In this document: in pieces, positions 418-60,266 of the stretch
Layout of the letters: the number at the start of each line of letters is the position of its first letter
Numbering within the stretch: the stretch's first letter is position 1
NCBI GenBank assembly: GCA_026018925.1
Contig: JAKSZU010000012.1
Span: 27,579,814-27,643,813, forward strand
Source of the DNA: Tupaia tana
Taxonomy: Eukaryota > Chordata > Mammalia > Scandentia > Tupaiidae
Direction: 5' to 3'
DNA length: 64,000 nt
The notes under the pieces: generated by a model
Seen by the model: only the letters and a program-made list of their open reading frames with translations
The model's database searches: none
Told to the model about the DNA's origin: nothing
Position numbers and translations under genes: made by a program

Positions 418-482
418 GTCTCTAAAGCTGCAGAAAACTTTCTGGTGACCTGTAGATCAGCAACCATACACTTATAAGTACC

Positions 483-524
483 ATGGACTTCTGCATGCCC
501 AAGCAGGATGTTCCTTTCCAATGA
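483..524 (+). other. short upstream ORF overlapping receptor start
   Basis: An ATG 25 bases before the receptor ATG opens a 13-codon frame that ends in TGA inside the receptor coding region, in a different frame. The inverted paralogue has the same uATG at the same offset and a similar overlapping short frame. Such a frame would lower translation of the receptor if the mRNA includes it. The function is inferred. Confidence 0.4.
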
Positions 525-1461
525 AACCCAGGTTCATCCTTCTTCCTTCTTACTGCTGGGGATTCCAGGACTAGAAACACTTCACATCTGGATTGGCTTC
601 CCCTTCTGTGCTGTATACTTGATTGCACTCACAGGGAACCTCACCATTCTGTTTGTGATAAAGACTGAGAGCAGCCTACACCAGCCCATGTTCTACTTCC
701 TGGCCATGTTGGCCGCCATTGACCTGGGCCTCTCAACAGCTACCATCCCTAAGATGCTTGGAATATTCTGGATTCATCTTAGAGAGATCTTCTTTGAAGC
801 CTGCCTCACTCAGATGTTTTTCATCCACAAGTTCACCCTTATGGAGTCAGCAGTCCTCTTGGCAATGGCTTATGACCGCTACGTGGCCATCTGCAACCCG
901 CTCCGATACAGCACTATCCTCACAAACAAGGTCGTTTCTGTGATTGGTCTTGGAGTTTCAGTGAGGGCATTTATTTTTGTCCTCCCATTTATATTTCTCA
1001 TTTTGCGATTGCCCTTCTGTGGGAATCATGTCATTCCTCACACCTATTGTGAGCACATGGGTCTTGCTCGTCTATCTTGTGCCAGTATCAAGGTCAATAT
1101 TATTTATGGCCTATGTGCTATTGGTAACCTAGTGTTCGACATCATAGCCATTGCACTTTCTTATGTTCAGATCCTCCGTGCTGTTTTCCGCCTTCCTTCC
1201 CGTGAAGCCCGACTTAAGTCCCTCAGCACCTGCGGTTCCCATGTTTTTGTAATCCTTGCTTTCTACACACCAGCTCTCTTTTCCTTTATGACACATCGGT
1301 TTGGCCGAAATGTTCCCCGTTATATCCACATACTGCTGGCCAATCTTTATGTTGTAGTGCCACCAATGCTCAATCCTGTCATATATGGAGTCAGAACCAA
1401 GCAGATCTATGATTGTGTGAAAAAAATACTATTGCAAAAACACGGAATGGAAAAAGAATAA
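508..1461 (+). CDS. class I olfactory receptor, OR52E-like, intact
   Basis: Complete 317-residue, single-exon, seven-transmembrane G-protein-coupled receptor, the usual length for the family. It would act as an odorant receptor in olfactory neuron cilia through the olfactory G protein and cAMP. Visible features are an N-terminal glycosylation site (NET, residues 5-7), GIPG at 18-21, the TM1 GN at 43-44, LHQPMF at 58-63, the TM3 cysteine at 99 and [10 protein letters not shown] at 120-129. The YCEHM motif at 180-184 and the class I TM7 motif [14 protein letters not shown] at 285-298 follow. The ATG has A at -3 and fits the family's usual distance to GIPG. A near-identical inverted copy lies at 44746-45681. 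OR52 family assignment is fairly safe; the E subfamily is from memory of family motifs and is less sure. Confidence 0.93.
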
Positions 1462-2029
1462 CACTAACACATATGAAGTTCCATATGCAATTTTATTTAA
1501 GTCAAAAAATGCTTTGTAATAAAAATTAAGTTCTGATACATTGGTTGTGCTCTGTAATTATTTAAATATAGTAAATTTCCACCTGTTTTTCATATCACTT
1601 CATCTCATTACCATTTTCTTTCTCTTCAGTTCTTTCATACAACTTTATTTTATCAGGCTATTTCATTTTTCTCTATTTTTTCTATATACGACTGATATTT
1701 TTATATCATATCCAAACGCATTCATTGTTTCTAAAATAGCTGATATTCCATGAAGCTTATTTCTTCTTCTTTTTAATACATTATATTCATTTTCAGATTA
1801 TCTATTTTCATAATTTTGGATGCTGGGGATAAAATGGTGACTATGCCATTTCAACTTAGAAACATCAATGTTTTTCTTTCAATCCTTTTATATCATTATA
1901 ATTTTAGTTTGTGTTACCTTTAAGTACCATAACATTTCCTTTTAAAGAAATTTGACAATTTCAGTATGTTGAATACTCTACTACATTCATTCACGTTTAA
2001 GATATTGTTCTTTTGTTTGTTTTGGAATT

Positions 2030-5590: not shown

Positions 5591-6474
5591 GCCATGTGTT
5601 TCTGAAACTGAAGCATGGATTCCTATAGCAACATGATATTTTTCTCTTTTAGTTTTACTCATCATTCTGTGGTAGTAAAATCATTAAGTATTATAATAGG
5701 ATTAGTTGGTTTTCCTTCTCATCTTCTATAGGATTGCAGTATTATACTTAAATATAGGCATAATAGGTTTCAATTATTAAAATTAACATAGAAAGAGGAA
5801 TGAAACACTTGAAATAAAAAGAGAATGTATTCATACACAAGTATACTGGGATTCAGAACTGGTGAGCTGCTTATACTGATTATGCTAAACAAGTAATTTT
5901 GTTCATTCTGAAAAATTCTATTTTTTAATCAAAATTCATTTTCATAAAATGTATAGTTATGGGATATAGTGTGATATTTTGTTGGATTGTCTGGGAAGTT
6001 ATGACATACTTTTGCATAGAGAAATACATCACGACTTTCCCAATGACCTAATGATACATATATACATATATACATTGAATAATGATCAAGTTATGCTAAT
6101 TAGAATAGCCATCAACATAAGCATTTATCATACCTGTGTTCTCAGAATATTCAAAACATTCTCTTCCATCTATCTGAAATATACATGTATATTGTTATCA
6201 TTATTCTTCCTACTGTGTATTAGAACTCCAGGACTTATTCTTCCTAACATTATGGCCATTGATCAAATTGACTGGATTTTTTAACAGAAGAAACTATTTA
6301 AAATCCGTATAAGAACCATAATTAAAATGACAATATAGAAAGATGTGTCATTAATGAAGAGGGCAGGAATGATCTTAGACAAGATTTTGTTCTATTAGTT
6401 TATTTTGAAGAAAATTAGCCATGTAATATATTATTTCCCAAACCATATAACAAAAACCATATAGGGTAAGATTT

Positions 6475-11141: not shown

Positions 11142-11241
11142 NNNNNNNNNNNNNNNNNNNNNNNNNNNNNNNNNNNNNNNNNNNNNNNNNNNNNNNNNNN
11201 NNNNNNNNNNNNNNNNNNNNNNNNNNNNNNNNNNNNNNNNN
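11142..11241. other. assembly gap (100 N)
   Basis: Exactly 100 N, the usual placeholder for a gap of unknown length. The real distance, and the order of sequence around it, may differ. Confidence 0.98.
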
Positions 11242-15539: not shown

Positions 15540-17310
15540 GATGGAAGATGTTAATGCTGGCAAGAAAGATTCAAAATAAAGATAAGAGCAATAAAGATGT
15601 TTTGCTGAGAAGTCACCCTGGAAAAGCATAAAGGGCAGGCCAGAAGATAACTGAGTCCTCCATGAGATCTGAGATCTAGGGCTTTCATGGAGAAGAGCAA
15701 CGGAGATGTTCTGCTGAGAAGTCACCCTGGTAGAGCCCCCCCATCCCCATCTTTTTCTCTATGTCTCTCTCTGTCTCTGTCTGTCTTTTCTCTCTTTTTC
15801 TTTTCCTTTTCTTAATTTTTAAAGTATTTTCTTGGCTCTGAAATACTCCTTTACCTAGGTAATAATCTCTTCCCCTTTCCCCTTCCCATTTAGGAAAAGA
15901 ATAAAGGTTGGCAAAAGAGAAATGTCAAGTTACCTACAAAGGATATCTCATCAGGTTTAACAAAGGACCTCTCATCAGAAACAATGTGAGCAAGGAAAGA
16001 ATGGGAAAATATATTCAAAGTGTGAGTGAAAAACAATTTCAACCAAGAATACTATATCTGGCAAGATTATCCTTTATATGGAAAAAGAAGGCAAGAACAT
16101 TCTCAGATTAACAAAACCTGAAAGAATTTACCAACATCAGTCCAGCTCTCCAAGAAGTTCTGAAGGGAGTGCTATCCCAGGAAAACTAAAGTCAGACACA
16201 CAGAAATAAGAGTTCTAAAACAACTAAGAAAATGGCCAACTTAATGGTAGGGAAAAGTCCAGAGTTGAACGTTATCTTACAGAATTTAAACGGAAAGATT
16301 AGACCACAACAGCAGATAAAGTACACAAATTTGAACTGGCAAAATAGAATTTTATGACTTTGGGACCAGCATTTAGCGTAATGGCTATGTCGCTGGACTC
16401 CCATGTAGTCGACCGCGGTTCGCGTCCCGGACCTGGTAGCTTAAAACTCACGCCGGGCGCATGTGCGTGCGTGCCCAAGATCCTGAGAAGAGAATGAAGG
16501 AGAAGGGATTGCGGCGTGCCATCCACCCTGGGGGGTGATTTCTCACTTTCTGTCTCTCTGTCTCTCTCTGCACGTCTGGCGAGTGCACGCGCCCTGTAGC
16601 AAAAATCTCTCCAAAAAAAAACAAAAAGAATTTTATGACTTTTGACTAAAACATTGCTGATCTAGGCTTTGTTTATCAGAGTTAAGAAGTTTTTGTCTTC
16701 TTTTGAGTTGTGGACAGGTCCGCATACCTGCTATTCTAACAGAATCCTGACCTATTTCCTGGCTTTAAGTATCAGGCAAAATTCTCTTAACATATTTTTT
16801 ATTTTGATTTATTAAAGCTAAAACTGCCTTTCTTGAAATTAAAAAAAATAATTGAAAAATACATATTTAATGACCACAGTAAGCTATATAGTCTCAGCTA
16901 GGTGCCACTTTATAGTATATTGATTCTACCCACAGAGTTTCATGCCTAGTCAACTTTTGTTCACAGATAGGTATATATCAGCTGAACTTACTATTGAAAG
17001 TATTTAGATTAGTAAATATTTTGTAAATCAATGAAATATGGGAAAGAATAAAGGAATGGAAAGCAACTGCAGATACCAGAGACAGGGTGGGAGGAAGATG
17101 GGAAATGGCAGAGGGTGAGAAATGGGGGGGGGGGGGGGGGTGATATATACATACAAGAAACAAGAAATGGAAAATTATTTGTTGATGATAATGTGTATGA
17201 TTAAGCCACTTTGCAATGTATTCTGGCTGGAAAATCACATTTTGTATGCTGTGGTGATGTTCAGTGAAAGAATATAAAATAAGTAAAATAAATAAATAAA
17301 TAAAAATACC
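15540..17310 (+). repeat. LINE-1-like element pieces, left arm of an inverted pair
   Basis: Holds monomer-like units (GCTGAGAAGTCACCCTGG occurs twice, about 120 bp apart), then a LINE-like block at 15925-16200 (..GGAAAGAATGGGAAAATAT..). A plus-strand LINE-1 3' end with a poly-G tract (17127-17141) and an A-rich tail near 17280-17305 follows. The first 670 bases reappear inverted at 17311-18260. Naming it LINE-1 rests on the 3'-end pattern and remembered family sequence. Confidence 0.55.
16362..16626 (+). repeat. SINE-A with 16-bp target-site duplication
   Basis: Consensus-like copy (box B GGTTCGCGTCCC). AGAATTTTATGACTTT flanks it at 16346-16361 and 16627-16642. Confidence 0.9.
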
Positions 17311-25715: not shown

Positions 25716-26292
25716 CTTCTATTCTTATTACATTAAACAGTACAAAGTAGTAATGAATGAATAGCAACAGGAATTCCTGGCTTATTTCTGATTTTAAAGA
25801 AAATACTTTGAGACTTTCAGTATTATGACTTTGCATATTAAAGCTTATTTATAATTATATTTGATTGACTAATCCAGTTTTCCTCCATTTTTACTCCTGA
25901 GTGAATGATTGAATTAAGAACTGAGCCCACAACTGTGGTAGAGAAGTTTAAGAACCAAGAAGGCCACACTTCTGAAATTCATAATCACAGTATATACTTT
26001 TGAATGAATCTTAATTAGAAGAACAGACTGTATTCCCACTACCACATCCAGTATCAAGCAGAAAGGATTATAAAAACAAGGAATAGGAGAATACTGTTAA
26101 GAAAGAAATTATCATTTTCCTCCATATGTTACTATTAGAAATAAATGTTTATCTCTCAACTAATCCCTCAGAAATGGATAATCAAGAAGCAGGAACTATA
26201 TATATTCCCTGGTATGTTATTTACTAAATCTATGAAAGTGGGAGAAAGTCTGTGTGTCACCACCACAAATTATATTTTAAAAACTAATTATT

Positions 26293-26556
26293 GGGACCAG
26301 CAAGTAGCATAATGGCTATGTCGCTGGACTCCCATGTAGTCGACCGCGGTTTGAGTCCAGGACCCGGTGGCTTAAACTCACGCCGGGCGTGTGTGCGTGC
26401 GTGCCCAAGATCCCGAGAGGAGAATGGAGGAGAAGGGATTGCAGTGTGGCCATCCCCCCTGGGGGGTGATTTCTCGCTTTCTATCCCTCTGTCTCTCTCT
26501 CTGTCTATCTGGTGAGTGCACGCACCCTATAGCAAAAACCTCTCCAAAAAAAAAAT
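26293..26556 (+). repeat. SINE-A with target-site duplication
   Basis: Near-consensus plus-strand copy, flanked by CTAATTATT at 26284-26292 and 26557-26565. Confidence 0.9.
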
Positions 26557-31187: not shown

Positions 31188-31558
31188 CAGAGACAACAGG
31201 TGGTGTAATGGTTATGGTACTGTACTCCCACAAGGCCAAGTACGGTTCAAGTCTTGGACCTGGAGGCTTGAAAATTATTCTGAGGGCAAGGCCAGCCATC
31301 AGTATAATCATTGACATTGAAACAGTTATGTCACTAGACTCTTGCATAGTTTACTGCAGTTTGAGTCCCAGACCCAGAGGCTTAAAACTCACACCAGATG
31401 CCTGTGCGTACGTATCCAAGATCCCAAGAGGAGAGTGGAGGAGAAGGAACTGCAGCATGGCCATCACCCCTGGGGGAGATTTCTTGCTTTCTGTCTCTCT
31501 GTCTATCTCTGTCTCTCTGGTGAGTGCATGCACCCTACAGCAAAATCTTTATCTCTGA
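31188..31558 (+). repeat. two overlapping SINE-A copies
   Basis: A first head (ACAACAGGTGGTGTAATGG..GGTTCAAGTCTTGG) is followed by a second copy starting about 31292 (GCCAGCCATCAGTATAATC..), which runs to CCTACAGCAAAATC. Confidence 0.7.
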
Positions 31559-31783
31559 AAAAAAAAAAAAAGAAGAGAAAGAAATAAAGAAAGAGAAAGA
31601 AAAAGAAAAAGAAAAAGAAAGAAAGGAAGAAAGAAGGAAAGAAGAAATAAAGGAAGGAAGAAAGAAAAACAGAAAGAGAAGAAAGAGAGAAAAAAGAAAG
31701 GAGGAGGAAAGACAAAAGAAAGAGAAAGAAAGAAAGAAAAGAAAGAAAAGAAAGAAAGAAAGAAAGGAAAGAAAGGAAAGAAA

Positions 31784-31845
<62 letters not shown>

Positions 31846-31886
31846 GGGAGGGAGGGAGAGAGGGAGGAATAGAGAGAGAGAGAGAG

Positions 31887-31929
<43 letters not shown>

Positions 31930-32075
31930 AAAGAAAGAAAGAAAGAAAAAAAAAGACAAGACAAGACAAGACAAGACAAGACAAGGAAAAGAAAAGAAAA
32001 GAAAAGAAAAGAAAAGAAAAGAAAAGAAAAGAAAAGAAAAGAAAAGAAAAGAAAAGAAAAGAAAAGAAAAAGAAA
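31559..32075. repeat. long polypurine tract, (GAAA)n/(GACAA)n/(GAAAA)n
   Basis: About 517 bases almost free of pyrimidines on the plus strand. It moves from mixed GAAA/GGAA to pure GAAA (31795-31850), GGGAGGGA, GAAA again, GACAA (7 units near 31955-31985) and then a run of GAAAA units to 32070. It grew from the A-rich tail of the preceding SINE. Long Lys/Arg/Glu or Phe/Leu/Ser frames here are artefacts. Confidence 0.95.
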
Positions 32076-32240
32076 ATCATGCTAGGTATGTGTGCATGCA
32101 TGCCCAAAATCCCTGGAGGAGAATGGAGGAGAGGGATTGCAGCATGGCCATCCACTCTGGCGGGCTTATTTCTCACTTTCCCTTTCACTGGCTCTCTCTG
32201 GTGAGAGACACGCCCTATGGCAAAAAACAAAACAAAACAA
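32076..32240 (+). repeat. 5'-truncated SINE-A
   Basis: Starts in the middle of the consensus (CATGCTAGGTATGTGTGC) and ends GCCCTATGGCAAAAAAC. Confidence 0.8.
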
Positions 32241-32417
32241 AAAATCAATTTTGTTTATTCTGAGATGCCCTATTAGATACCTACCTCATGCCTTGTACAA
32301 ACAAGAACAGATACAAATTTATTATACTGCAGCAAACATTTTATTTAAGAAAATCATTTCACTCATGTGAATTTTGCTGTTTTATTTTTCTAGTTATAAA
32401 ATATATATTTATATAGT

Positions 32418-33107: not shown

Positions 33108-33111
33108 CCAC
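33108..33111. repeat. target-site duplication, left copy
   Basis: CCAC directly before the LTR; the partner is at 41492-41495. Confidence 0.9.
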
Positions 33112-33563
33112 TGTTAGGGCGCCGGCCGCCTGGCTTGGCGCGCTTTCCGTCCAGAGGGTACGCGACCCCCAATCAACCACAAGAGTCGGTTCTTGATGCA
33201 AAATGCAAGAGGTTTTATTTTTCCAGCCGGCTGGGGTCTAAGCAAACACCTGACGCAGCAGGCCTGAGCGAGGACCCCGTTTTTAGGGTTATAGGTCTTT
33301 TTATAAGCAGGAGAAGGTATGCGGAAGTTTAACGGGTAGTTCATTTCTAGGGGGAAGGGTGGCAGTCTTGTGACACACGTGCATGGGTTGTCTTTCTAGT
33401 TCCATGTCCACATTCCTTTTGCTCCATTCCTGGAGGTTTGCATAATTAAGTCTGTCGGGGCAGTTTATCACAAGGGCAGTTTATCACAAGGGCATCCGGC
33501 AAAGGCAAAGGTTAAATTTTATCTCTACAGAGCAGAAAGACATAATTTAAAGTTATTTTTACA
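33112..33563 (-). repeat. 3' LTR of gammaretroviral provirus
   Basis: 452 bp, beginning TGTAAAAATAAC and ending CGCCCTAACA in sense orientation. It has a TATA box (TATAAAAAG, 33297-33305 reversed) and AATAAA (33214-33219 reversed). Two tandem 16-bp units (33458-33489) lie in U3 and contain GATAA. This copy supplies the poly(A) site. Confidence 0.96.
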
Positions 33564-33575
33564 TTCCCCCATTTT
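33564..33575 (-). promoter_or_regulatory. polypurine tract
   Basis: In sense it reads AAAATGGGGGAA and abuts the U3 TG. This is the plus-strand DNA primer site typical of gammaretroviruses. Confidence 0.9.
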
Positions 33576-33607
33576 GCGTTTTTTGGAAGAAGTTTTAATC
33601 ATAAAAC

Positions 33608-35575
33608 TTATGGACCCACAAGAGCATCAGAATAATTTTCTGACTGTTGGAGAGTCTGATATTGTTGTCGGAGCATGAGTACTTGAACTGCGCTTACCCG
33701 CTCACGGACGAAAGTGACTAGGCGGTTTAAAATGCAAGGCCCGAAGGTTAAGATGAGAAGGAGTATAATTAGGGGACCGAGCAAACTAGAGACAAGGGTG
33801 GTGAGCCAGGGGGAACGGCTATACCAACTTTCGAACCATCCCTGCTGGGCTTCTCGGTCTTGACGCCTTTTGTCTAGCCGTTCTCGAAGTTTAGTCATGG
33901 AGTCTTTAACGACTCCTGAATGGTCTGCATAGAAACAGCATTGTTTATTCAAAGCAGCACATAGTCCCCCTTCTTTAAGGAATAGGAGGTCAAGTCCTCG
34001 CCTGTTTTGTAATACTACTTCAGACAAGGAGGTTAGGGACTCTTGAAGTTTAGTTATAGAGTTTTCTACGGCCCGTAGATCTTCGTCTATGGCTGCACGC
34101 AGGCTTTCTGCATATTGGGGGGCCTGTATAAGTGCAGTTGTCCCGGTTCCAATGCCCGCGGCCACTCCGAGGCTTAATAATACTGCCAGGGTGGTCAGTG
34201 AGACTGGGTCTCTCTTTTGTCTAAAATGTTTTAGGCCAAATTGGTTTTCAAAGGTGTCAGAAGCATAATAGATGACTCTGGGGAGTACCTGTACTAGAAC
34301 ACAGTAGTCAGAGTTGGGGTTAAACACCGAGGAAGAGACGCAAGGGGTCAGCCCAGTAGTACAAGCCCACCAACTCCCAGGAGGGGGCACTAAGTATGTA
34401 TTAGTGGAGTGGATGGTTGAAATAGTCTTATTACACAGATGTTGGCGGTCAGAGGGCACTTTGCCGAGGCAGGTGCCCTGTCCTGAGACCATTGCGAGGG
34501 TGAGCGTAGAGTTCCAACTGCAGGAGTGGGGGGAGGGAGTGGTGTTATAGGTTCCTGGGAAAGCTATGCCCTCATAGTAGGGGGGGCTCGAGGCTAAGCA
34601 CAGCCAACAGGACTCGGTAAGGCTGGGACTAGAGGAATTGAGGGCAGAGAAGGCTCCCTGTACTAAATTGAGAAGTCTCTGCCCAGTACCGGGGGGGTTC
34701 GGAGTACTTGGGGTGAGGGTGGACTGAACTGTGGGGCTGGGTACTGGGGGTTTCTGAGGGATAGGAATGGCGGATGTTTGAGGGACCTGGGGAACTTTGG
34801 GTGGTGATTCTTGTTCAATCAGGACAGAATTGGGCCCCACAGGTGCAGTAGGAGGGTCTTGTACGCGCAGCCTGATGGAAAAGGCGATGCCGGGATCCGC
34901 CCCCGTGGCATATAGTCTAAGGCCCCACATTTTCCCGATGAGCCAATTTTGGGTTCTTCGCTTACCCTCAGCAGTAAAGGTGACCTGAACGGGGTTGTAT
35001 CTAGTGAGGGTACCTTTGCAAGCGTCCCAGGTGTTAGGGCCTCGCCATGGCCCTCTAGTAACAGTTATCAGAGGATCTGGGTGTGGCGGAGTCCAAGAAA
35101 TGTAGCCGGTGGACACACAATCCCAATCATAACAGAAGAAATGTGCGGTGCCCCCACATTTGTAAGAGTTGCTACCAGGGCAGACATAAAAGTAATGATC
35201 GTAGGTGCCTGATTTAGTGCCCGGACCCGCACATCCATACTGCAGCCTGAAGGGATCTTGGATGGACTTAGTCCACAAGTCACCCACGAGGTCACAGAGA
35301 TCAAATTCTAGGGTGGGAAACCAAGTCCCCAATGGGGCCGTGCGAGTGGTGATGTTAACAACGTGGTTATCACCCACACGGGAGATTACCCAAGAAAGGG
35401 ACAGGGGCTTATGGGGGTTGGCACTACTTATTGCAGGCAGAGGCATCAGGAGGAGCAAGACTGCCGCGGCGAATGCGGAGCTTGAGTGGGTGATCTAGTT
35501 TTTCCACCTTCCAAGTGGGGTCTGGCGGAGGCGCTGGTTTAGCATGGGAGGCGTGGATTTAAGAAGCGATGCCAT
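33608..35575 (-). pseudogene. env: gammaretroviral env with one amber codon in the leader
   Basis: Envelope glycoprotein gene. Its first ATG (35575) overlaps the end of pol by 17 bases, as in gammaretroviruses. Codon 27 (35497-35495) is TAG, ahead of the hydrophobic signal core, so no normal signal-bearing protein starts from this ATG. The next in-frame ATG is codon 44 (35446), after most of that core. Downstream the frame is open to the stop. SU has a cysteine-rich receptor-binding region, a proline-rich hinge and the CWLC motif. A furin-type RQKR site (codons 452-455) precedes a 200-residue TM with a hydrophobic fusion segment, LQNRRGLDLLFLKEGG, C-x6-CC (CAALNKQCC), a membrane anchor and a cytoplasmic tail. 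Near the mature N-terminus the sequence reads PHK. An assembly error at the amber cannot be excluded. Confidence 0.9.
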
Positions 35576-38500
35576 TAACCTTTATTGCTGTTGGAGTGGT
35601 CAGCAGCACCAGGTACGGTCCCTTCCACCGAGGTTCGAGGGTGGCCGCTCTATGTCGTCGGATGAACACTGAATCTCCAACCTGGAACTGGTGAGGCACC
35701 TGGGAGTCTCCTGGCTTGTAGGCCTCTGCAAGTTGAGCCCAAGTTTCTTTTTGGACAAATTCAAGGGCTTTTAGTCTAGCATAAAGAGATTGAGAAGCTT
35801 GGGAGTGGGAACAAGAGAGGTATACATTAGTCAAAGGCGGCGGTGCCCCATATAGAATCTCGAAAGGGGTTAAGGCGAAGGGGCCAGGTGTATTTCGCGC
35901 GCGGAACAGGGCGAAGGGAAGGAGGACTGTCCAATCTTTTATGCCAGTCTCTAAAGCCAATTTTGTCATGGCCTCTTTTAGGGTTCTATTTATTCTCTCA
36001 ACCTGTCCTGAGCTTTGGGGCCTATAAGCACAATGCAATTTCCAGTCAGACCCCAGGACCCTGGCCAGTCCCTGACTAATCTGGGCAACAAAAGCGGGGC
36101 CGTTGTCGGACCCAATAACCAGTGGCACCCCGAATCTCGGGAAGATTTCTTCTAGGATTATCTTGGCAACTGTCTGAGCAGTCTCTTTTTTAGTGGGGAA
36201 GGCTTCGACCCACCCTGAGAATGTGTCAACCAGCACTAGCAGATACTTGTAGCCATATTTGCCTGGTTTTATTTCAGTAAAGTCCACTTCCCAGTAACTT
36301 CCCGGACGATGTCCACGAAGCCGCTTTCCTTGTGGTGTCTTGTCTGGGTAGGCGTTAACTAATTGGCAGGGTCTGCATCGGTTAACTATTGTTTCGGCGA
36401 GTCTGCGCAGGTTTATGACATGGAACGAGGACTGCCGGACTGAGGTAATTAGATGTTTTGAGCCTAGGTGTGTCAACTTATGAAGCTGATCGAGGAAAGC
36501 AATTGCTTGTTCTCGAGGGAGGATAGTCTTTCCCTCGACAGTCTTACGTACCCCCTCTGGGGTCACGGAGTGAGGTCCCATTTTATTTATTTCTAGTAGG
36601 TCTTGTTCGGAATATGAAAGAGTCTCACCCGAGGGACCTGAGTCGATCGTCTCATGTAGTGGTAGTATATTAAGCCCCTGGGCCGCCCGCTTAGCCGCCT
36701 GATCTGCTCGCCGGTTTCCCTCTGCTACCCGGGATTTTGCCTTTTGATGCCCGGGGCAGTGGATAATAGCGACCTTCTTAGGGAGGTGTATAGCCTCTAG
36801 CAATTCCAAGATTTGTTCTTTATGTTTGATATCTTTACCAGCTGAGGTCAGTAAGCCTCGTTGTCTATAGATAGCCCCATGGACATGGGCGGTAGCGAAG
36901 GCATACCGGCTATCAGTGTAAATATTTATGACCTTTCCCTCTGCCAGACGCAGGGCCTGAGTCAAGGCGATGAGTTCAGCTTTCTGGGCTGATGTTCCCT
37001 CAGGCAAGCTACTCACCCAGACCGTCTGGTCGTCGTCCACTACAGCCGCCCCTGCCACCCTTTTACCTTCTATGATGTAGCTGCTTCCATCAGTGAACCA
37101 GGTCAGCTGGGCATTTGGTAGCGGCTGATCTTGGAGATCCCGTCGGGTTCCGGTTTCTTCCGCCAGGACTTCTTGGCAGGTATGGAAGACAGCCCCCTTG
37201 GCGGAGGTCTCTGGCAGCAGCGTGGCAGGGTTGAGATTGACCGGGGGTCCAAACTGGACCCTGTCCTTGTCTAACAAGAGACTCTGGTAATGAGTCATAC
37301 GAGCATTGGACAGCCATCGGTCGGGGGGCTGCCGGATGATGCTCTCTAAAGCGTGTGGGGCAATGACTAGTAATTTTTGTCCCATAGTCAATTTGTCAGA
37401 ATCTTTTACCAGTGTCGCCACAGCCGCTATCGATCTCAGGCAAGCCGGCCATCCCCCAGCCACTGGATCCAGTTTTTTTGAGAGATAGGCCACCGGTCTT
37501 TTCCAAGGCCCTAAGGGTTGCGTGAGCACCCCTCGGGCCACCCCCTTTTTTTCATCTACATATAGAGTGAAAGGTTTTGTCACATCAGGCAGGGTCAAAG
37601 CCGGGGCTGATAGTAAGGCTTTTTTTATGTCATCAAAAGCCTGTTGTTGGTCAACGCCCCACTCGAAGGGGGTTCCCTCTTTAGTCAGGGGGTAAAGAGG
37701 AGCAGCCATAGCGGCGAACCCCGGTATCCATAGGCGGCAGAATCCCGCCGTCCCCAAGAATTCTCGCACTTGCCTGGGCGTGCGAGGAACGGGGATCTGG
37801 GTTACAGTCCGTTTTCTGGCTTCGGTGAGCCACCTCTTTCCACCCCTTAAAGTATAGCCCAAGTATGTTACCTCTTGTTGACAGATTTGGGCCTTTTTAG
37901 CAGAGGCGCGATACCCCAGGCGGGCCAGTTCTTCTAGCAGCAGTCCAGTGCCCTGCCGACATGTTTCTTCGGTTGCTCCTGCGAGCAACAAGTCGTCTAC
38001 ATACTGTAGGAGGGTCACCTCAGGGTGGCTGGCGCGGAAGTGTGCGAGGTCCTGATGGAGGGCTTCATCAAAAATAGTAGGCGAGTGCCGGAAACCCTGA
38101 GGGAGTCGAGTCCATCTTAATTGTCCCGTGATCCCCGTGTCGGGGTCCCTCCATTCAAAGGCAAATATATTCTGGCTGGAGGGGTGCAGTCGCAGGCAGA
38201 AGAAAGCGTCCTTTAAGTCTAAGACAGTATACCAGTCCCGTTCTGGAGGTAGAGAACTTAGCAGGTTATATGGATTAGGTACTGTGGGATGGATGTCCTG
38301 TACCCGCTTATTGACCTCCCGCAAGTCTTGCACAGGGCGATAGTCACTTGAGCCGGGTTTTTTTACGGGCAGCAAGGGGGTATTCCAAGGAGACTGGCAT
38401 TTTTTAAGAATACCCAGGTGTAGGAGGCGTTGTATGTGAGGCCTGATACCTTCTCGGGCTTCTTTAGTCATAGGGTATTGGCGTAGTGCCACAGGGGTAG

Positions 38501-39017
38501 CTGTAGCTTTTAGTTCTATTAGTATTGGGGGCCTGTTGGTGGCTAATCCCATTCCAGCTGTCTCGGCCCAGGCTTTAGGATATTTTTGCAGCCAAGCATG
38601 AAGGGGGCCAGTGTTACTATCTTGACTTTCAAAAAGCCGGTGTTCATCTTGTAGGCGTACAGTTAGGACTAATGTCTGCACGTCCGGAGTAACCTTTGGA
38701 CCCCGTGGGGTAAAATTAATCTGTGCCCCCATTTTGGTAAGTAAGTCTCTCCCAAGGAGGGGTGCCGGACATTCAGGAATGACCAAGAAGGAGTGGGTCA
38801 CTAGGCCTCTTCCGAGGTCAACTGTTCTATTGGTGGTCCATGGATACTGCTGGTACCCGGTTGCCCCTATGACCCAAGATTTTTTCTTGGAAAGTGGCCC
38901 CGATGGTGCCAGTAACACTGAGTGTTGGGCCCCAGTGTCGACTAAAAAATTAATTGGCTTCCCCTCCACTTTTAGAGTTACCCTAGGCTCGGGGAGGGGC
39001 TCCGAGCCCCGTCCCCC
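35559..39017 (-). CDS. pol: gammaretroviral pro-pol (read-through product of gag)
   Basis: In the same frame as gag, directly after the gag amber codon, and made as Gag-Pol by stop-codon read-through. The first codons after the stop are GGGGGACGG, a G-rich context of the type that supports read-through. It is open for about 1,152 codons. In order: aspartic protease (VDTGAQHS near codons 26-33, LLGRDLL); reverse transcriptase ([17 protein letters not shown]); RNase H (FTDGSS, AELIAL, YTDSRYA); integrase with the zinc-binding HHCC region (CRPCQL) and the D,D-35-E core ([27 protein letters not shown]). It ends TAA at 35559-35561, overlapping the env start. No frameshift or internal stop was seen. 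It supplies maturation, reverse transcription and integration functions. Confidence 0.96.
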
Positions 39018-39020
39018 CTA
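39018..39020 (-). promoter_or_regulatory. gag amber codon, read-through site
   Basis: TAG between gag and an in-frame pol, followed by GGGGGACGGGGCTCGG. In this family a downstream pseudoknot makes ribosomes read the amber as an amino acid part of the time. Confidence 0.85.
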
Positions 39021-40622
39021 GTCTGAGTCCTCGTGCAGGGCAAGTACTTCGGCCGGAAGGGGCGGCTGCACTTTGTTTTTCTTGGCCCTTTTAGGACAGT
39101 CTTTTGCCCAATGTCCTTTTTCTTTACAATAAGCACACTGGTCTTTGTCTAGTGGGATACGACTAGGCTTTAGTCCCTTGTTGGGGCCCCGTTCTTGTCC
39201 CCTTTCCCGCACTACAGTGGCCAGGATCCGAGCTAGGTTTTTTTCTTGTCTTTTTTCCTTTTTACTCTCTCTTTCCTCCCTTTCTTTTTCCCTCCTCTGT
39301 TCTCTTTCTTCTTCTGTTTCTCTTTTATAATATACTTTTTCTGCTTTTTTAACTAAGTCCTGTAAAGAGAGATCCTGCAACCCATCGAGTCTCTGGAGTT
39401 TTTTCTTAATATCTAATGCTGATTGTCCAATGAAGGCCATAGCTACGGAGGCTCTCTGTCCCTCAGAAGCAGGGTCAAAAGGGGTAAACCGCCTGAATGC
39501 CTCCATGAGACGCTCAAGAAACACTGACGGGGGTTCTGTAGCCCCCTGCATAACCTCTCTTACCTTAGCCAAATTAGTGGGGCGCCTGGCAGCCCCACGG
39601 AGGCCAGCCACTAGAGCCTGGCGATAGACTGTCAGTCGCTCCCTACCTTCTGCCGAATTGTAGTCCCAGTTGGGTCGAGAGAGAGGAAAAGCAGCCTCGA
39701 TAAGGTTAGGAAGCTGAGTGGGACGTCCATCTGCCCCCGGGATATTTTTTCTTGCTTCGAGTAAGATCCTCTCTCTCTCTTCGGTGGTGAAGAGAGTCTG
39801 CAGGAGCTGCTGGCAATCGTCCCATGTTGGCTGATGAGAGAACATTAGGGACTCTACCAGGCTGGTTAGGCGCTGGGGGTCCTCGGAGAAAGGGGGGTGG
39901 TTAGTTTTCCAGTTGTAAAGGTCAGAGGAAGAAAAGGGCCAATATTGGAGAGGCTGTAGGGGAGGTAGCCCCTCGTCAGTAGGCGGAGGTGGGGGCCCAT
40001 AGGCCCGTAAGGGCAGTGCCACAGTGGTATCAGGAGACGGGAGTGCGCGACGTTGACTCCTAGTGCCCTGAGCAGGCCCTAGAAGGGCACCCTCAGAGGG
40101 GGCGGAAGGACCAAGTCTAACGTTAGGTGGCACTCCGGGGTCTCTGCGCCTTTCTTCATTTAGCAGAAGGGATGGGGGGTATGGGGGAGGGGTGTCTAGG
40201 AGAAAGAGGTCTTGGGTCTCTGGATAGATTCGCTTAGGACGTTTGGTAAGGTCTGAACCCTCTGGAGGCTTGGGGGACTGGGCCACCAGGACCTGAGGGG
40301 GGTTTGGACGGGGCCTGGGCAACCATGGTCGAACCCACGAAGGTGGGTTTTGGATCAGATCTTGCCAAACGATGATGTACGCTTGCTGGTCCGGATGACT
40401 TCCTGGTCCCTTCTGAAAGACAATGTCTTTGATGGAAAGGATAGCGTTAAGGTCAAACGTGCCTTCGGGTGGCCACCCAACACCAAAGGTGGGCCACTCA
40501 GAGGCACAAAACGTCTGCCAGAGTCCCTTTTTAATTTCTACAGACAGGTCGCGACCTCTTCCCTTCACTTCAGTCCAGTGTCTGAGAGTCAAATTTAAAG
40601 GAGTCACCACAGTCTGCCCCAT
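39018..40622 (-). CDS. gag: gammaretroviral gag polyprotein
   Basis: 534 residues of core polyprotein, the usual gammaretroviral length. I start at the third codon of the longer frame because MGQTVVTPL gives the N-terminal glycine needed for myristoylation. Matrix is followed by a p12-like proline-rich part with a PPPY late motif (145-148), which recruits ubiquitin ligases for budding. Capsid begins near PLRAYG (about 204), with [16 protein letters not shown] and the major homology region. A charged Glu/Arg/Lys helix follows, then nucleocapsid with one zinc knuckle [14 protein letters not shown] (496-509). It ends in TAG at 39018-39020, in frame with pol. No damage is visible. Confidence 0.97.
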
Positions 40623-41018
40623 CGTCAATGGTTAGGTTAAGAGTACAAACAACAGAACAAAGAACAGGACAAGACAAACAGAAAGTAACTACCGATTTTT
40701 GTTTTCCACAATCTTAGGACAGATTCAGACGGGCGCAGGCCAAAATATGTACCCGACCTGCACCCTTACCGTAGGAGACGATCAGGCGTCCCTAATCCTC
40801 CTCCGCCCTTAGGGCGTCCCCCAGGGCTGCAGCCTGTGGTTCTCCGGGCACGTCTACCAACCACAGTTCGGCTATTTTACAATAGGCCGAACGGCTGCGA
40901 AACCTGAAACAGACTATTGGGTACCACACTGAAACAAACAAGAAAGTCGACAAACAATCAGGGGTTTTTTTTAGGCTTACCTCCAAGGCCGACGTTGTAG
41001 ATGATGGGTAGCCGCGAT
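40623..41018 (-). promoter_or_regulatory. proviral leader and probable packaging region
   Basis: About 400 bases between the primer site and gag. A strong splice donor, GGAG/GTAAGCC (exon end 40981, GT at 40980-40979), lies 38 bases past the primer site and would serve the spliced env mRNA. The rest is where gammaretroviruses carry the packaging signal; that role is inferred from position. Confidence 0.7.
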
Positions 41019-41036
41019 ATCCCGGACGAGCCCCCA
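41019..41036 (-). promoter_or_regulatory. primer binding site, tRNA-Pro
   Basis: In sense it reads TGGGGGCTCGTCCGGGAT, the 18-base complement of the proline tRNA 3' end used by most gammaretroviruses. It starts three bases inside the 5' LTR end. Confidence 0.96.
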
Positions 41037-41039
41037 AAA

Positions 41040-41491
41040 TGTTAGGGCGCCGGCCGCCTGGCTTGGCGCGCTTTCCGTCCAGAGGGTACGCGACCCCCAA
41101 TCAACCACAAGAGTCGGTTCTTGATGCAAAATGCAAGAGGTTTTATTTTTCCAGCCGGCTGGGGTCTAAGCAAACACCTGACGCAGCAGGCCTGAGCGAG
41201 GACCCCGTTTTTAGGGTTATAGGTCTTTTTATAAGCAGGAGAAGGTATGCGGAAGTTTAACGGGTAGTTCATTTCTAGGGGGAAGGGTGGCAGTCTTGTG
41301 ACACACGTGCATGGGTTGTCTTTCTAGTTCCATGTCCACATTCCTTTTGCTCCATTCCTGGAGGTTTGCATAATTAAGTCTGTCGGGGCAGTTTATCACA
41401 AGGGCAGTTTATCACAAGGGCATCCGGCAAAGGCAAAGGTTAAATTTTATCTCTACAGAGCAGAAAGACATAATTTAAAGTTATTTTTACA
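41040..41491 (-). repeat. 5' LTR of gammaretroviral provirus
   Basis: 452 bp, identical by eye to the 3' LTR. TATA box 41225-41233, AATAAA 41142-41147 (both reversed), tandem 16-bp units 41386-41417. It would be the promoter of the provirus, firing leftwards. Confidence 0.96.
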
Positions 41492-41495
41492 CCAC
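41492..41495. repeat. target-site duplication, right copy
   Basis: CCAC directly after the LTR, matching 33108-33111. Confidence 0.9.
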
Positions 41496-44235: not shown

Positions 44236-44745
44236 AAATAAAATAATTCTTAAAGATAGAAAAGAAATGCATTTAGAAATACATACATCTGAACCAATAT
44301 TTTTCTTTATCAGAAAAAAAAATTCAAATAACAGAGTTAAAAAACAAGGAAGGAAACACAGGCAATGGACACAGAGTAAGAAGACACAGGGGGTTTAGGA
44401 GTAAATATGGAGAGTGTAACTGAAAACACCCACATAAATGATATAGGGTAGATAGAGCACAAAAAATACGGCAGATTTTCTAAGATCCTACTTAAAATCT
44501 ACCGACTGACATCAGTAATCAGAAATCAGACCTAAGAACTCTGATAGGCTATTATTTATTATGTAGATAGATTGGATATGAAAGCTTAGATGTTTATTTT
44601 CTGAATTAAACAGCATGTTGACAGGAACTAGCAAAAATAAATAAGCTTTTATGTTAAATGTATTTAAATTCATTCAATATGACAAGGCGTTTATCTACTC
44701 AAAAGGCCATCTCATATGTATTAGATGCTATTCCCATTCAAGTCA

Positions 44746-45681
44746 TTACTTTTGCAATAGTATTTTCTTCACACGGTCATAGATCTGCTTGGTTCTGACT
44801 CCATATATGACAGGATTGAGCATTGGTGGCACTACAACATACAGATTGGCCAGAAGTATATGGATATAGCGGGGAACATTTCGGCCAAACCGATGTGTCA
44901 TAAAGGAGAAGAGAGCTGGTGTGTAGAAAGCAAGGATTACAAAAACATGGGAACTGCATGTGCTGAGGGACTTAAGTCGGGCTTCACGGGAAGGAAGGCG
45001 GAAAACAGCACGGAGGATCTGAACATAAGAAAGTGCAATGGCTATGATGTCGAACACTAAGGTTGAAATAGCACATAGGCCGTAAATAATATTGACCTTG
45101 ATACTGGCACAAGATAGACGAGCAAGACCCATGTGCTCACAATAGGTGTGAGGAATGACATGATTCCCACAGAAGGGCAATCGCAAAATGAGAAATACAA
45201 ATGGAATAACAGAAATAAATGACCTCATTAACACGGCAAGACCAATCACACAAACAGCCTTGTTTGTGAGGATAGTGCTATACCGGAGTGGGTTGCAGAT
45301 GGCCACGTAGCGGTCATAAGCCATTGCCAAGAGGACTGCTGACTCCATGCCAGTGAAATTGTGGATGAAAAACATCTGTGTGAGGCAGGCTTCAAAGATG
45401 ATCTCTTTGAGATTGATCCAGAAGATTCCGAGCATCTTAGGGATGGTAGCTGTTGAGAGGCCCAGGTCAATGGCGGCCAACATGGCCAGGAAGTAGAACA
45501 TGGGCTGGTGTAGGCTGCTCTCAGTCTTTATCACAAACAGAATGGTGAGGTTCCCTGTGAGTGCAATCAAGTATACAGCACAGAAGGGGAAGCCAATCCA
45601 GATGTGAAGTGTTTCTAGTCCAGGGATCCCCAACAGTAAGAAGGAAGAGGGGTGAACCTGGGTTTCATTAGAAAGGAACAT
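44746..45681 (-). CDS. class I olfactory receptor, OR52E-like, intact (inverted paralogue)
   Basis: 311-residue intact receptor, differing from the gene at 508-1461 at only a few tens of positions. It has the same first 89 residues, including the NET glycosylation site, LHQPMF and PKMLGIFWI. Changes cluster in TM3-TM5 (IINL.. region 90-112, TM4 140-165, TM5 205-210), where family members contact ligand. It has [18 protein letters not shown] and [16 protein letters not shown]. One change, STCSSHV for the usual STCGSHV in TM6, is unusual. It stops at LLQK, six residues earlier than its partner. The 5' flank is also shared, including the acceptor-like CTTTAG (exon start 45761) and the short upstream frame. 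The pair arose by an inverted duplication, or a tandem one later inverted. Confidence 0.93.
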
Positions 45682-45706
45682 ACTGCTTGGGCATGCAGAA
45701 GTCCAT
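45668..45706 (-). other. short upstream ORF overlapping receptor start
   Basis: An ATG 25 bases before the receptor ATG, in another frame, ends TAA inside the receptor. It matches the one at 483-524. Confidence 0.4.
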
Positions 45707-45841
45707 GGTACTTACAAATGTCCAATTTACAGGGCACCAGGTAAAACTCTCAGTTAGAAACCTAAAGAAAAATAGGAACATCACACAATTGTATACATTA
45801 CATTTTCAGTTAATTTACACAACTAGAAATATACTTTGGAG

Positions 45842-52168: not shown

Positions 52169-53389
52169 CCTTTACCAAAGTCTTAGCATAATTAACCAAT
52201 GGAATTAGCATTAAAAACCTGCTCTTCCGCATAATTTTCTTCCTATAAAACACTTAGTAGGCTTTCCAAAAATTTTTCTACAGCATTCTGATAATAGAAC
52301 CTGCTTCAGTTGCAAGTTTAACATTATTCATACCTTACTGTTACTTGTAATGTTCAACCCAACTAGCACTAGCTAAGAAAAATGTGACATTCTCCTCACC
52401 ATGGTTAACTTAAATGTCAATTTTTCTGGTTTTCGCCTTCACAGAAATGTTGTCCACTAGACTTCTTTTTACTAGTTGATATCTCATGAAGCTATAAATT
52501 TGCCCTCTTTTTCATCTGTCTAAAAAGCAAAATTTCAACAAAGTTAGTTTGAAGATCTAAGTGGCTATTAGTAGTGATTCATGAATGTGCCAGTATCTTA
52601 TCAAAACACAGAACGAACTTCATTGGGCAGGCAGGACAGTTGGATCTTATAAAGTAGATTGAAGAGAAAACAGAGTAATACAAAATACAACAGAAAAAGG
52701 TAGATTCTTAATACCAGATAACTTCAGGTTACAGGCCTTGTAAAGATTACAGCAAAGAAACCTTCTTATCATTCAGGTTCAGGTAGACTGGACCCCTTTT
52801 GATTGGCTGCTGAGAGTCTCCTACTTAGAGCAAAAAATGTTCTGTTTGGGGATTTTCCTGTTTCCTCAGAGTTTTAGTTTGATTATGTAGCACATAGCAC
52901 AAGTGACTCCATTTGGTTTGGTCTGTGGGAGCTCAGTTCAGAACAACAGCCTCCCATAAATTTTACCTAAGATGTATTTCCCATACCTTTATTAGATAGT
53001 ATAGATGTCACATTAGTTCTCAGAGTGGCCTCACCTACAGATAGGCAAACTCACTCTTCTTTACTTCTAGGGGATATATTTGTTGATTCATTGACTTTGA
53101 ATTTACAACCAACACCACCATTTCTCATTTCTGGACAAAGGCTATCTACAAAGATAATTTCTCCACAAAGCATATGACATCCTTCTTACAACTGAACACT
53201 TGAGAGCACTACAGGATTATATTGGGTGCTATCTAAAACAGCAATATCATCAACAAAAATGAGAAAAGCGTGACATTAAACAGACTCCCAAAAGGACTCT
53301 ACATTACGAGAGATGAAATCACATGTCAGAGCCTTACCTTGTCTAACCTCAGCTGAGAACATGCCTATCAAAAAGTTTCCAGGTTCTTG

Positions 53390-53671
53390 GGACCAGCAGT
53401 TAGCGTAATGGCTATGTCGCTGGACTCCCACGTAGTCGACCGCGGTTCGAGTCCCGGACCCGGCGGCTTAAACTCACGCCGGGCGCGTGTGCGTGCGTGC
53501 CCAAGATCCCGAGAGGAGAATGGAGGAGAAGGGATTGCGGCGTGGCCATCCCCCCTGGGGGGTGATTTCCTGCTTTCTATCTCTCTGTCTCTCTCTGTCT
53601 GTCTGGCGAGCGCACGCGCCCTATAGCAAAAACCTCTCCAAAAAAAGAAAAGAAAAAAAAAAAAAAAAAAA
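53390..53671 (+). repeat. very young SINE-A, perfect 19-bp target-site duplication
   Basis: The closest copy to consensus in the window: TAGCGTAATGGC (box A-like), GGTTCGAGTCCC (box B), intact CpG-rich middle and a long poly(A). AAAAGTTTCCAGGTTCTTG occurs at 53371-53389 and 53672-53690. Confidence 0.95.
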
Positions 53672-58435: not shown

Positions 58436-59315
58436 AGTCAGACAAAAAATAATGCAATACAAGTACAATGATTTGTTTATTTCCTGACACAATGTCATCA
58501 CCCCAACCTTGTCATCATCCTGAATAATTCCCACAAAGTAATGAATAAACCTCCTTCTCATTTCACAATAGACACACTATCAAATGTTGGTTTTCCTATC
58601 TCAGAATCACACCATATAACCTGCCTGACCCAAAACTACTGTGGTTAAAATCAGAAAATAAAAAATAAAACAAGAACCTCTTTTCAATTCAGAACTTAAT
58701 ATCATCCTTCCTGCTTCACCCTATTTAACTTACACTGCACTGTTTCTTACTAAGTTTTCCTAACCCATAACTTACATGATCTTCAATTTTCAATTGGCAC
58801 TAATTTTTTCTCAATGAAATAGTTAAGTCTGGATATTTAATACCTAAATATTTGTCCTCACTTAGCTCCTAAATATTAGTCTTATTGCAATGTAAAAAAT
58901 GTTTATAAATGAAAATTTATCAATAGCAATATATTGGTAGAAATTTGTAAAACTGCTCTGTTCAGGGCAAGGATATTCCTAGAGTTCAGTGAATGTCAAT
59001 AAAGACAAAAAAATACTCTGCAGTTCTTACTCCATATACTCTATAAATTAACATACAGAGATACATCTCTCTATATATAAATTTGGGTGGTGCCTTTTTT
59101 GAGGTAAAATAACACTGTAATAATATCTGATTTATCATCAGATAATGAATTAATTTCTATGAAAACCCTCTCAAGCATTGTAATTATTCCACATCCATAA
59201 TTTTCTAGATTTTCTTTTATGCTTTCTTAACTTATCAGAGGATTCAAAGATTATAAATTATTATTTTGTTTACTTTAGAGAAAAGTGCATGAAGAGAAAA
59301 CATATGACCCTTGTT

Positions 59316-60266
59316 ATGGCAGTGTACAATAAGACCAACATCCATCCGTCAACCTTCATCCTCATTGGTATCCCTGGGATGGAGGCTGCTCACTGCTGGA
59401 TCTCCATACCCTTTTGTGCAGCATACCTTTTGGCCCTCCTGGGGAACTGCTGTCTTCTGTTTGTCATCAAGACGGACTCAAGCCTCCATGAGCCAATGTA
59501 CCTCTTCCTCTGCATGCTGGCTGTGGCTGACCTAGTGGTGTGTACTACAGCTGTGCCCAAACTTCTCAGCCTTTTCTGGTTCCGTGATCGAGAGATTCGC
59601 TTTGAAGCCTGCCTCACTCAAGTGTTCCTCATTCACTCTTGCTCTACCATGGAGTCTGGTTTCTTCCTGGCCATGGCTTTTGACCGTTATGTAGCCATTT
59701 GTCATCCATTAAGACATTCAGCTATTCTGTCACACACTGTCATTGGGAGACTGGGCGTAGCTATTGTACTCAGGGGCGTGGCACTCCTCAGTCCTCACCC
59801 CTTCCTACTTCGTTGGCTTCCCTACTGCAGAACCAATATTATTTCTCACACCTACTGTGAGTTTATGGCCCTCATCAAGATTGCTTGTGCTGAGACAAGA
59901 ATCCGCAGAGCCTACAGCCTCATTGTTGCCTTCCTAACTGGTGGGGTGGACCTCATACTGATCATCTGTTCTTATGTCCTTATTCTCAACACTGTCTTTC
60001 ATCTCCCAACCAAAGATGCTCGACTCAAGGCTTTGGGGACCTGTGGCTCTCATGTCTGTGTCATCTTAGTGTCCTATACTTCGGCTTTCTTTTCATTTCT
60101 CACCCACAGGTTTGGTCACCATGTGGCTCCCCATTTTCACATTTTTGTGGCCAATGTCTACCTCCTTCTCCCATCCATGGTGAATCCCATTATCTATGGG
60201 GTAAGAACTAAGAGGATACGGGACAGATTTATTACATTGTTCAGTTTTTCAAAGCCCCTGAATTGA
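59316..60266 (+). CDS. class I olfactory receptor, OR52-like, intact
   Basis: A 316-residue intact receptor if translation starts at 59316. Earlier in-frame ATGs exist at 59289 and 59304. I prefer 59316 because it has G at -3 and G at +4, and it puts GIPG 18 residues in, as in the other receptors here. Seen: NKT glycosylation site, GIPGME, LHEPMYLFL, MAFDRYVAIC (tyrosine to phenylalanine in the family MAYDRY), SHTYCEFM, CSYVLIL, KALGTCGSHV and [16 protein letters not shown]. It is clearly separate in sequence from the OR52E-like group in this window. Subfamily not assigned. Confidence 0.92.
   Translation: MAVYNKTNIHPSTFILIGIPGMEAAHCWISIPFCAAYLLALLGNCCLLFVIKTDSSLHEPMYLFLCMLAVADLVVCTTAVPKLLSLFWFRDREIRFEACLTQVFLIHSCSTMESGFFLAMAFDRYVAICHPLRHSAILSHTVIGRLGVAIVLRGVALLSPHPFLLRWLPYCRTNIISHTYCEFMALIKIACAETRIRRAYSLIVAFLTGGVDLILIICSYVLILNTVFHLPTKDARLKALGTCGSHVCVILVSYTSAFFSFLTHRFGHHVAPHFHIFVANVYLLLPSMVNPIIYGVRTKRIRDRFITLFSFSKPLN

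What the first reader, a model, noticed from the sequence alone, without database searches (positions are those of the whole stretch)
33108..41495. Very recent, nearly intact gammaretroviral provirus
Seen: two 452-bp LTRs with no difference by eye, a perfect 4-bp flanking repeat, open gag and pol, every cis element in place and no later repeat insertion. LTRs are identical at integration and diverge with time, so zero differences in 452 aligned positions implies a young insertion, perhaps still unfixed in the species. Complete gammaretroviruses of this quality are rare in most mammalian genomes.
Basis: partly seen in the sequence, partly recalled or inferred. Interest (0 to 1): 0.9.

Follow-up and report, generated by a model that had tools for sequence, protein, structure and literature searches.

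The report
Young gammaretroviral provirus with active family
A recently inserted, almost complete mouse-leukaemia-type retrovirus sits in a cluster of smell-receptor genes of an unnamed placental mammal; it is not a lone jewel but one of many young copies, and about half of its relatives are crippled forms that seem to have spread by borrowing proteins from better copies.

Summary
A complete provirus lies on the minus strand (33112-41491): two 452-bp LTRs with 0 differences, CCAC on both sides, tRNA-Pro-type primer site, polypurine tract, open gag, TAG read-through element, pol and env. "Nearly intact" needs two corrections: pol ends 44 codons before the next in-frame stop, losing the integrase tail, and the env leader holds an in-frame stop. 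Neither stop is in the 4 other full-length copies compared. "Rare" is wrong for this genome: it has 66 exact LTR/primer-site junctions, and 7 of 9 LTR pairs compared are identical. The surprise is the family: 35 of the 66 carry one env deletion of about 1.22 kb. The three read inside are also broken in gag and pol, yet copies on two contigs are 99.6-100% identical, and six LTRs at four sites are identical. Such copies cannot encode their own spread; trans-mobilisation by coding relatives is the best explanation. Zero LTR differences mean at most about 0.7-1.5 million years; fixation cannot be judged. Host: a placental mammal, unnamed, apparently not Cynocephalus volans.

The parts
33108..33111 (.). 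target-site duplication CCAC (one copy)
   Evidence: sequence; equals 41492-41495
33112..33563 (-). 3' LTR, 452 bp
   Evidence: identical to 41040-41491
33564..33584 (-). polypurine tract
   Evidence: motif next to the 3' LTR
33608..35494 (-). env frame downstream of the leader stop, 628 codons; RQKR 34211-34222, CWLC 34598-34609, CX6CC 33935-33961, NRRGLDLL 33983-34006
   Evidence: (TLV_coat, 537 bits)
35495..35497 (-). in-frame stop in the env leader, not in the 4 other copies compared
35559..39017 (-). pol frame (protease, RT, RNase H, integrase), 1152 codons; ends at a stop (35559-35561) before the integrase tail, a stop not in the 4 other copies compared
38959..39020 (-). gag TAG and read-through pseudoknot (Rfam RF01073)
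39018..40622 (-). gag, 534 codons: MGQT start, PPPY 40179-40190, one CCHC knuckle 39096-39137
40976..40981 (-). possible splice donor GGTAAG (a second such motif at 40765-40770)
   Evidence: motif only
41019..41036 (-). primer binding site, tRNA-Pro type (name recalled)
   Evidence: 18-nt motif
41040..41491 (-). 5' LTR, 452 bp: TATA 41227-41233, AATAAA 41142-41147
41492..41495 (.). target-site duplication CCAC (other copy)

Best explanation
A young endogenous gammaretrovirus of a placental mammal, inserted by retroviral integrase with a 4-bp target duplication less than about 0.7-1.5 My ago, in an olfactory-receptor cluster. It belongs to a family that was moving very recently. Shown: an env-bearing line with near-identical copies, and a line that lost env by one shared deletion, carries shared gag and pol lesions in the copies read, and makes up just over half of the proviruses counted. 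Inferred: these defective RNAs were packaged, reverse transcribed and integrated by proteins supplied in trans by coding members of the family, of which the window copy is a close relative and, with open gag, protease and RT, a possible donor; its own integrase tail and env leader are damaged, so it is unlikely to be fully infectious itself.
For: LTR identity and duplications. 66 exact 5' LTR/primer-site junctions, reversed-pattern control 0. Env-deletion joint at 46 places, control 0; 35 of the 66 5' junctions have it 4.5-6.3 kb downstream, 20 of them at 5723-5749, 10 at 6004-6065, 5 elsewhere. The joint is the same in 3 of 3 copies read (window-equivalent about 35011 to 33792, 1.22 kb); those 3 also lack about 193 nt of the protease region and have stops in gag and pol pieces. 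Copies on C486 and C531 are 99.6, 100 and 99.8% identical in three pieces; six LTRs at four sites are identical in 15 of 15 comparisons. Three copies on three contigs with different duplications (two full-length, one lacking much of gag-pol) have identical 1300-nt env pieces with one shared 1-nt gap against the window.
Against: No RNA, particle or population data. Only 3 short-form copies were read inside; the other 43 were counted by one 30-letter joint. The third copy read, on C975, is only 97.9-98.7% identical to the other two. Assembly collapse of near-identical repeats could inflate identity. Not every copy is young: of six further X-linked 5' LTRs, four differ from the window LTR by 13-20 mismatches. 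A helper need not be this copy or this lineage: one search shows another env group with 697-aa frames in the same genome.
Confidence: 0.85

Rival explanations
1. The LTR identity is due to gene conversion between LTRs or to assembly homogenisation, and the provirus is older.
For: The window has an assembly gap; PMC11928578 itself warns of conversion (section 10).
Against: In the 9 pairs compared, duplications match within and differ between pairs, LTRs differ between pairs (except that the two short-form pairs on C531 and C486 share one LTR sequence), and two pairs retain 1 and 5 mismatches; the env piece is 98.9-99.6% identical in the six nearest other copies.
Confidence: 0.08
2. The two stops in the window copy are sequencing or assembly errors and the copy is fully coding.
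For: Both lie within about 65 bp of each other, and neither is in the 4 other full-length copies compared.
Against: Both reading frames run on past the stops, and against one of the four copies the piece aligns with no gap at all, so they are not length errors relative to it; stops are common in family copies. Not decided without reads.
Confidence: 0.15
3. The env-deleted form spread by its own proteins before it acquired gag-pol lesions, with no trans help.
For: A longer deleted class (10 of 35, spacing 6004-6065) may predate the protease deletion (inference).
Against: The lesions are shared by near-identical copies at different sites, so they were in the template that moved.
Confidence: 0.1

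Closest known systems
Gag-pol of ERVs in Cnephaeus nilssonii (bat) and Nycticebus coucang (loris)
   Same: Pol 74-78% identical by BLASTP (up to 80% in the tree columns), one clade of 6 rows (SH-aLRT 95); gag 82% over 319 aa to P0121
   Different: Distinct branch; the bat env P0008, whose locus number adjoins gag-pol P0122, falls in another env clade than the window's
CynVolERV-A/B/C of Cynocephalus volans (PMC11928578; read abstract, first of three parts of Results, section 10)
   Same: Very young gammaretroviral family with near-zero LTR divergence and a large env-deleted subgroup, mostly pol-deleted too (B1, 183 proviruses)
   Different: GALV-like; the Cynocephalus-labelled env P0047 finds nothing above 65% here (top row 53%; 68 of 2003 candidates scored); deletions differ (1487 nt env and 133 nt RNase H there; about 1.22 kb env and 193 nt protease here)
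MLERV1/FcERV_gamma6/MPERV1 (PMC4643047; abstract only)
   Same: Gammaretrovirus that turned from infection to retrotransposition in one lineage
   Different: Endogenised 13-25 My ago there; not shown to be the same lineage here
Cervid CrERV (PMC8662619; abstract) and canine CfERV-Fc1(a) (PMC10727363; abstract)
   Same: Young gammaretroviral ERVs with unfixed or polymorphic loci
   Different: Polymorphism shown there, untested here; different hosts
MusD/ETn and IAP deletion forms of mouse (recalled)
   Same: Defective LTR elements moved in trans by coding relatives
   Different: Betaretrovirus-like, env-less helpers

Membership tests
Gammaretrovirus (class I ERV) | gag and pol in one frame with TAG read-through pseudoknot | tested here: met
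   (RF01073)
Gammaretrovirus (class I ERV) | Gag_MA, Gag_p30, single CCHC knuckle | tested here: met
Gammaretrovirus (class I ERV) | MLV-type pol and integrase C-terminal domain | tested here: met
   the MLVIN_C match stops at position 44 of 56
Gammaretrovirus (class I ERV) | gamma-type TM with CX6CC and immunosuppressive-type segment | tested here: met
   (segment name recalled)
Gammaretrovirus (class I ERV) | 4-bp target duplication | tested here: met
   9 of 9 pairs compared
CynVolERV | GALV/KoRV-type env, host Cynocephalus volans | tested here: not met
   window env falls outside the clade of GALV, KoRV and P0047
MLERV1/FcERV_gamma6 | same lineage in a tree | tested here: inconclusive
   no sequence labelled as such was in the trees
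Trans-mobilised defective ERV (short form) | shared coding lesions in near-identical copies at separate sites | tested here: met
   (3 copies read; two near-identical, the third 98%)
Trans-mobilised defective ERV (short form) | mobilisation by a helper demonstrated | not testable with these tools
   needs RNA or cell assays
Insertionally polymorphic ERV | empty site in other individuals | not tested
   no other individual held; flank search in the own genome did not complete

The most novel reading that the evidence does not exclude
The host is now, or was until very recently, being colonised by an undescribed gammaretrovirus lineage whose envelope carries a receptor-binding domain unlike those of the env proteins compared here (best-scoring match 43% identical), and whose coding copies drive a burst of an env- and protease-deleted parasite of the retrovirus that is already the commonest form counted.
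Probability: 0.4. Interest if true: 0.6.

Novelty: new member of a known kind. Interest (0 to 1): 0.42.

Why it matters
Most endogenous retroviruses are fossils. Here env-bearing copies with open frames, copies with shared lesions, and a defective form that is just over half of those counted coexist in one genome at very low age, so the passage from virus to genomic parasite could be followed step by step: env loss, protease loss, burst. It would allow direct tests (read mapping of empty sites, expression) of how far coding copies support a defective swarm.

Tried and rejected
Colugo as host: suspected from recall of a SINE and from a weak grouping of the OR neighbour with New World monkeys (90/77). 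A Galeopterus OR protein finds at best 88%, with a TGA, and the Cynocephalus-labelled env P0047 at most 65%; dropped as unshown. A lentiviral gag test (PF00540) did not complete. Text search for a SINE string: 0 papers. IMG/VR scan for pol: no relative. Recombinant env: suggested, not proved. The receptor-binding part scores best with P0027 (Marmota, 42.6%), the rest with the squirrel env P0001 (59% and 77%), among the 120 listed of 389 hits; but one tree pairs the whole window env with Suricata (SH-aLRT 96) above weak forks (54). No structure job was run.

Full report
OBSERVATION. The two LTRs (33112-33563, 41040-41491) are identical in 452 of 452 positions and flanked by CCAC on both sides. 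The element reads on the minus strand. gag (534 codons) has the MGQT start, PPPY and one CCHC knuckle; it ends in TAG, followed in frame by pol, with an Rfam hit to the gag/pol read-through element (77.5 bits, gathering score 67.7). Pol has protease, RT with YVDD, RNase H and integrase with its zinc and catalytic motifs; env matches TLV_coat over profile positions 12-560 of 560. TATA, AATAAA, tRNA-Pro-type primer site (name recalled), possible splice donors and polypurine tract are present as motifs. The best sequence matches among solved structures are an RT/RNase H p80 (4hkq), an MLV-related Env (4jgs) and a putative Gag (6hwx).

TWO DEFECTS. Pol stops at 35561-35559, 44 codons before the next stop of its frame. 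The 15 relatives whose ends were printed (of 120 listed) all run on through the tail; MLVIN_C is matched to position 44 of 56. In MLV this tail binds BET proteins and steers integration; virus without it still infected mice, under strong selection for full-length integrase (PMC6974304, abstract). The env frame has an in-frame stop at 35497-35495, preceded by 26 codons that begin with an ATG; 628 codons follow it. Neither stop occurs in the 4 other full-length copies compared. My inference: Gag, protease and RT may be made; integrase lacks its tail; Env lacks a normal leader. The copy is unlikely to be infectious alone.

AGE. Zero differences in 452 bp gives a 95% upper bound of 1.5 My at 2.2e-9 and 0.74 My at 4.5e-9 per site per year (the second rate is recalled). 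Nothing here tells whether the site is fixed.

FAMILY IN THE HOST GENOME. G000 has 2.95 Gb in 1198 contigs. The LTR search scored 40 of 870 candidates, 94-100% identical; the env search scored 40 of 200, 92-100%; both lists are capped. Of nine LTR pairs compared, 7 are identical, one has 1 mismatch, one has 5 mismatches and a gap column; 9 of 9 have matching 4-bp duplications. Of the 30 LTR loci read, 7 are solo LTRs with matching 4-bp repeats; an eighth single LTR (L032) has none. Exact 5' LTR/primer-site junctions: 66, reversed control 0. So a provirus of this kind is not rare here. Not all are young: of six further X-linked 5' LTRs, four have 13-20 mismatches to the window LTR, one has 7, and one aligned over only 107 nt. 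Of 30 env copies examined, 5 (the window copy is one by construction, since its frame was the query) give a single alignment without stop over at least 550 of 628 residues; 25 do not. The six nearest copies differ from the window env piece by 5-14 mismatches in about 1300. Three of them, on C1086, C420 and C342, have identical env pieces with one shared 1-nt gap although their duplications differ (GTTT, ATGG, AACC) and the C342 copy lacks window-equivalent 39646-35801: they spread after this env change.

THE SHORT FORM. Copies with LTR spacing near 6.4 kb lack window-equivalent 35011 to about 33792 (1.22 kb of env, 2-nt overlap at the joint), with the same joint in 3 of 3 copies. The joint occurs at 46 places, control 0, and lies 4.5-6.3 kb downstream of 35 of the 66 5' junctions; 9 of 66 are followed by a scored env piece, 22 by neither. 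The three copies read also lack about 193 nt of the protease region (38844 to about 38652), have 25 gap columns in a gag piece and have stops in gag and pol pieces. Nevertheless the copies on C486 and C531, with duplications AGTG and CCGT, are 99.6, 100 and 99.8% identical in three pieces; the C975 copy is 97.9-98.7% identical to them. Six LTRs at four sites are identical. Lesions shared by near-identical copies at separate sites must have been in the moving template; the proteins therefore came from elsewhere. That is the evidence for trans-mobilisation; the helper is inferred.

RELATIONS. Pol groups with ERVs of the bat Cnephaeus nilssonii and the loris Nycticebus (34 relatives chosen out of 120 listed of 529). 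Env is 56% identical over its whole length to the best listed hit, from Sciurus; two partial hits reach 59% over 74% and 61% over 67%. By parts, the receptor-binding segment's best-scoring match among the 120 listed env proteins is 42.6% identical, while the C-domain and TM are 59% and 77% to Sciurus. This fits recombination or fast change in the receptor-binding part; the trees (quick method) do not settle it. The window env is outside the GALV/KoRV clade, and P0047, a Cynocephalus-labelled env in that clade, has no close match in G000, so this is not CynVolERV and the host is very probably not that species.

HOST AND PLACE. The window is an olfactory receptor cluster: frames at 478-1461, 44746-45711 and 59289-60263, the last OR52D1-like, all three matching an OR52K2-like protein. 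Xist exon 1 is found once, on C1197 (82 bits; 55 of 348217 candidates scored); I take the host to be a placental mammal and C1197 its X chromosome. The family is over-represented there: 16 of 66 5' junctions (binomial p 4.9e-7), 15 of 40 scored env pieces (1.6e-9), 9 of 46 deletion joints (8.5e-4), against 5.6% of the genome. Independence of copies is assumed; duplications would weaken it.

VERDICT. A new member of a known kind; the family with its defective form is the more interesting object. No paper on this family was seen in the listings, which show only part of the matching papers where many matched and are limited by the unknown host.

Noticed in passing
G000:C1197 (taken as X by Xist): Family copies are enriched there: 16 of 66 5' junctions and 15 of 40 scored env pieces against 5.6% of the genome; those 15 env pieces lie between 72 and 127 Mb.
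   Followed up: partly
window 468-1476 and 44712-45721: Inverted pair of OR52-type genes 93.5% identical, on either side of the provirus at a distance.
   Followed up: no
window 11142-11241: Run of 100 N inside an OR-like frame.
   Followed up: no
window, e.g. 53384-53650, 26288-26555, 16360-16619: Dense tRNA-like SINE of about 270 bp, mostly 80-92% alike between copies, not identified; by their flanks two family solo LTRs (L029, L030) sit in such SINEs.
   Followed up: partly
window 31500-32250: Long GAAA-type simple repeat about 1 kb from the provirus (translations).
   Followed up: no
G000:C442:5777608, C177:580073, C1029:4871, C420:133409259: A second gammaretroviral env group with 697-aa frames, 58% to P0047 in its 3' part.
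   Followed up: no
G000:C408:20466160-20467119: Two family LTRs in opposite orientation 40 bp apart.
   Followed up: no
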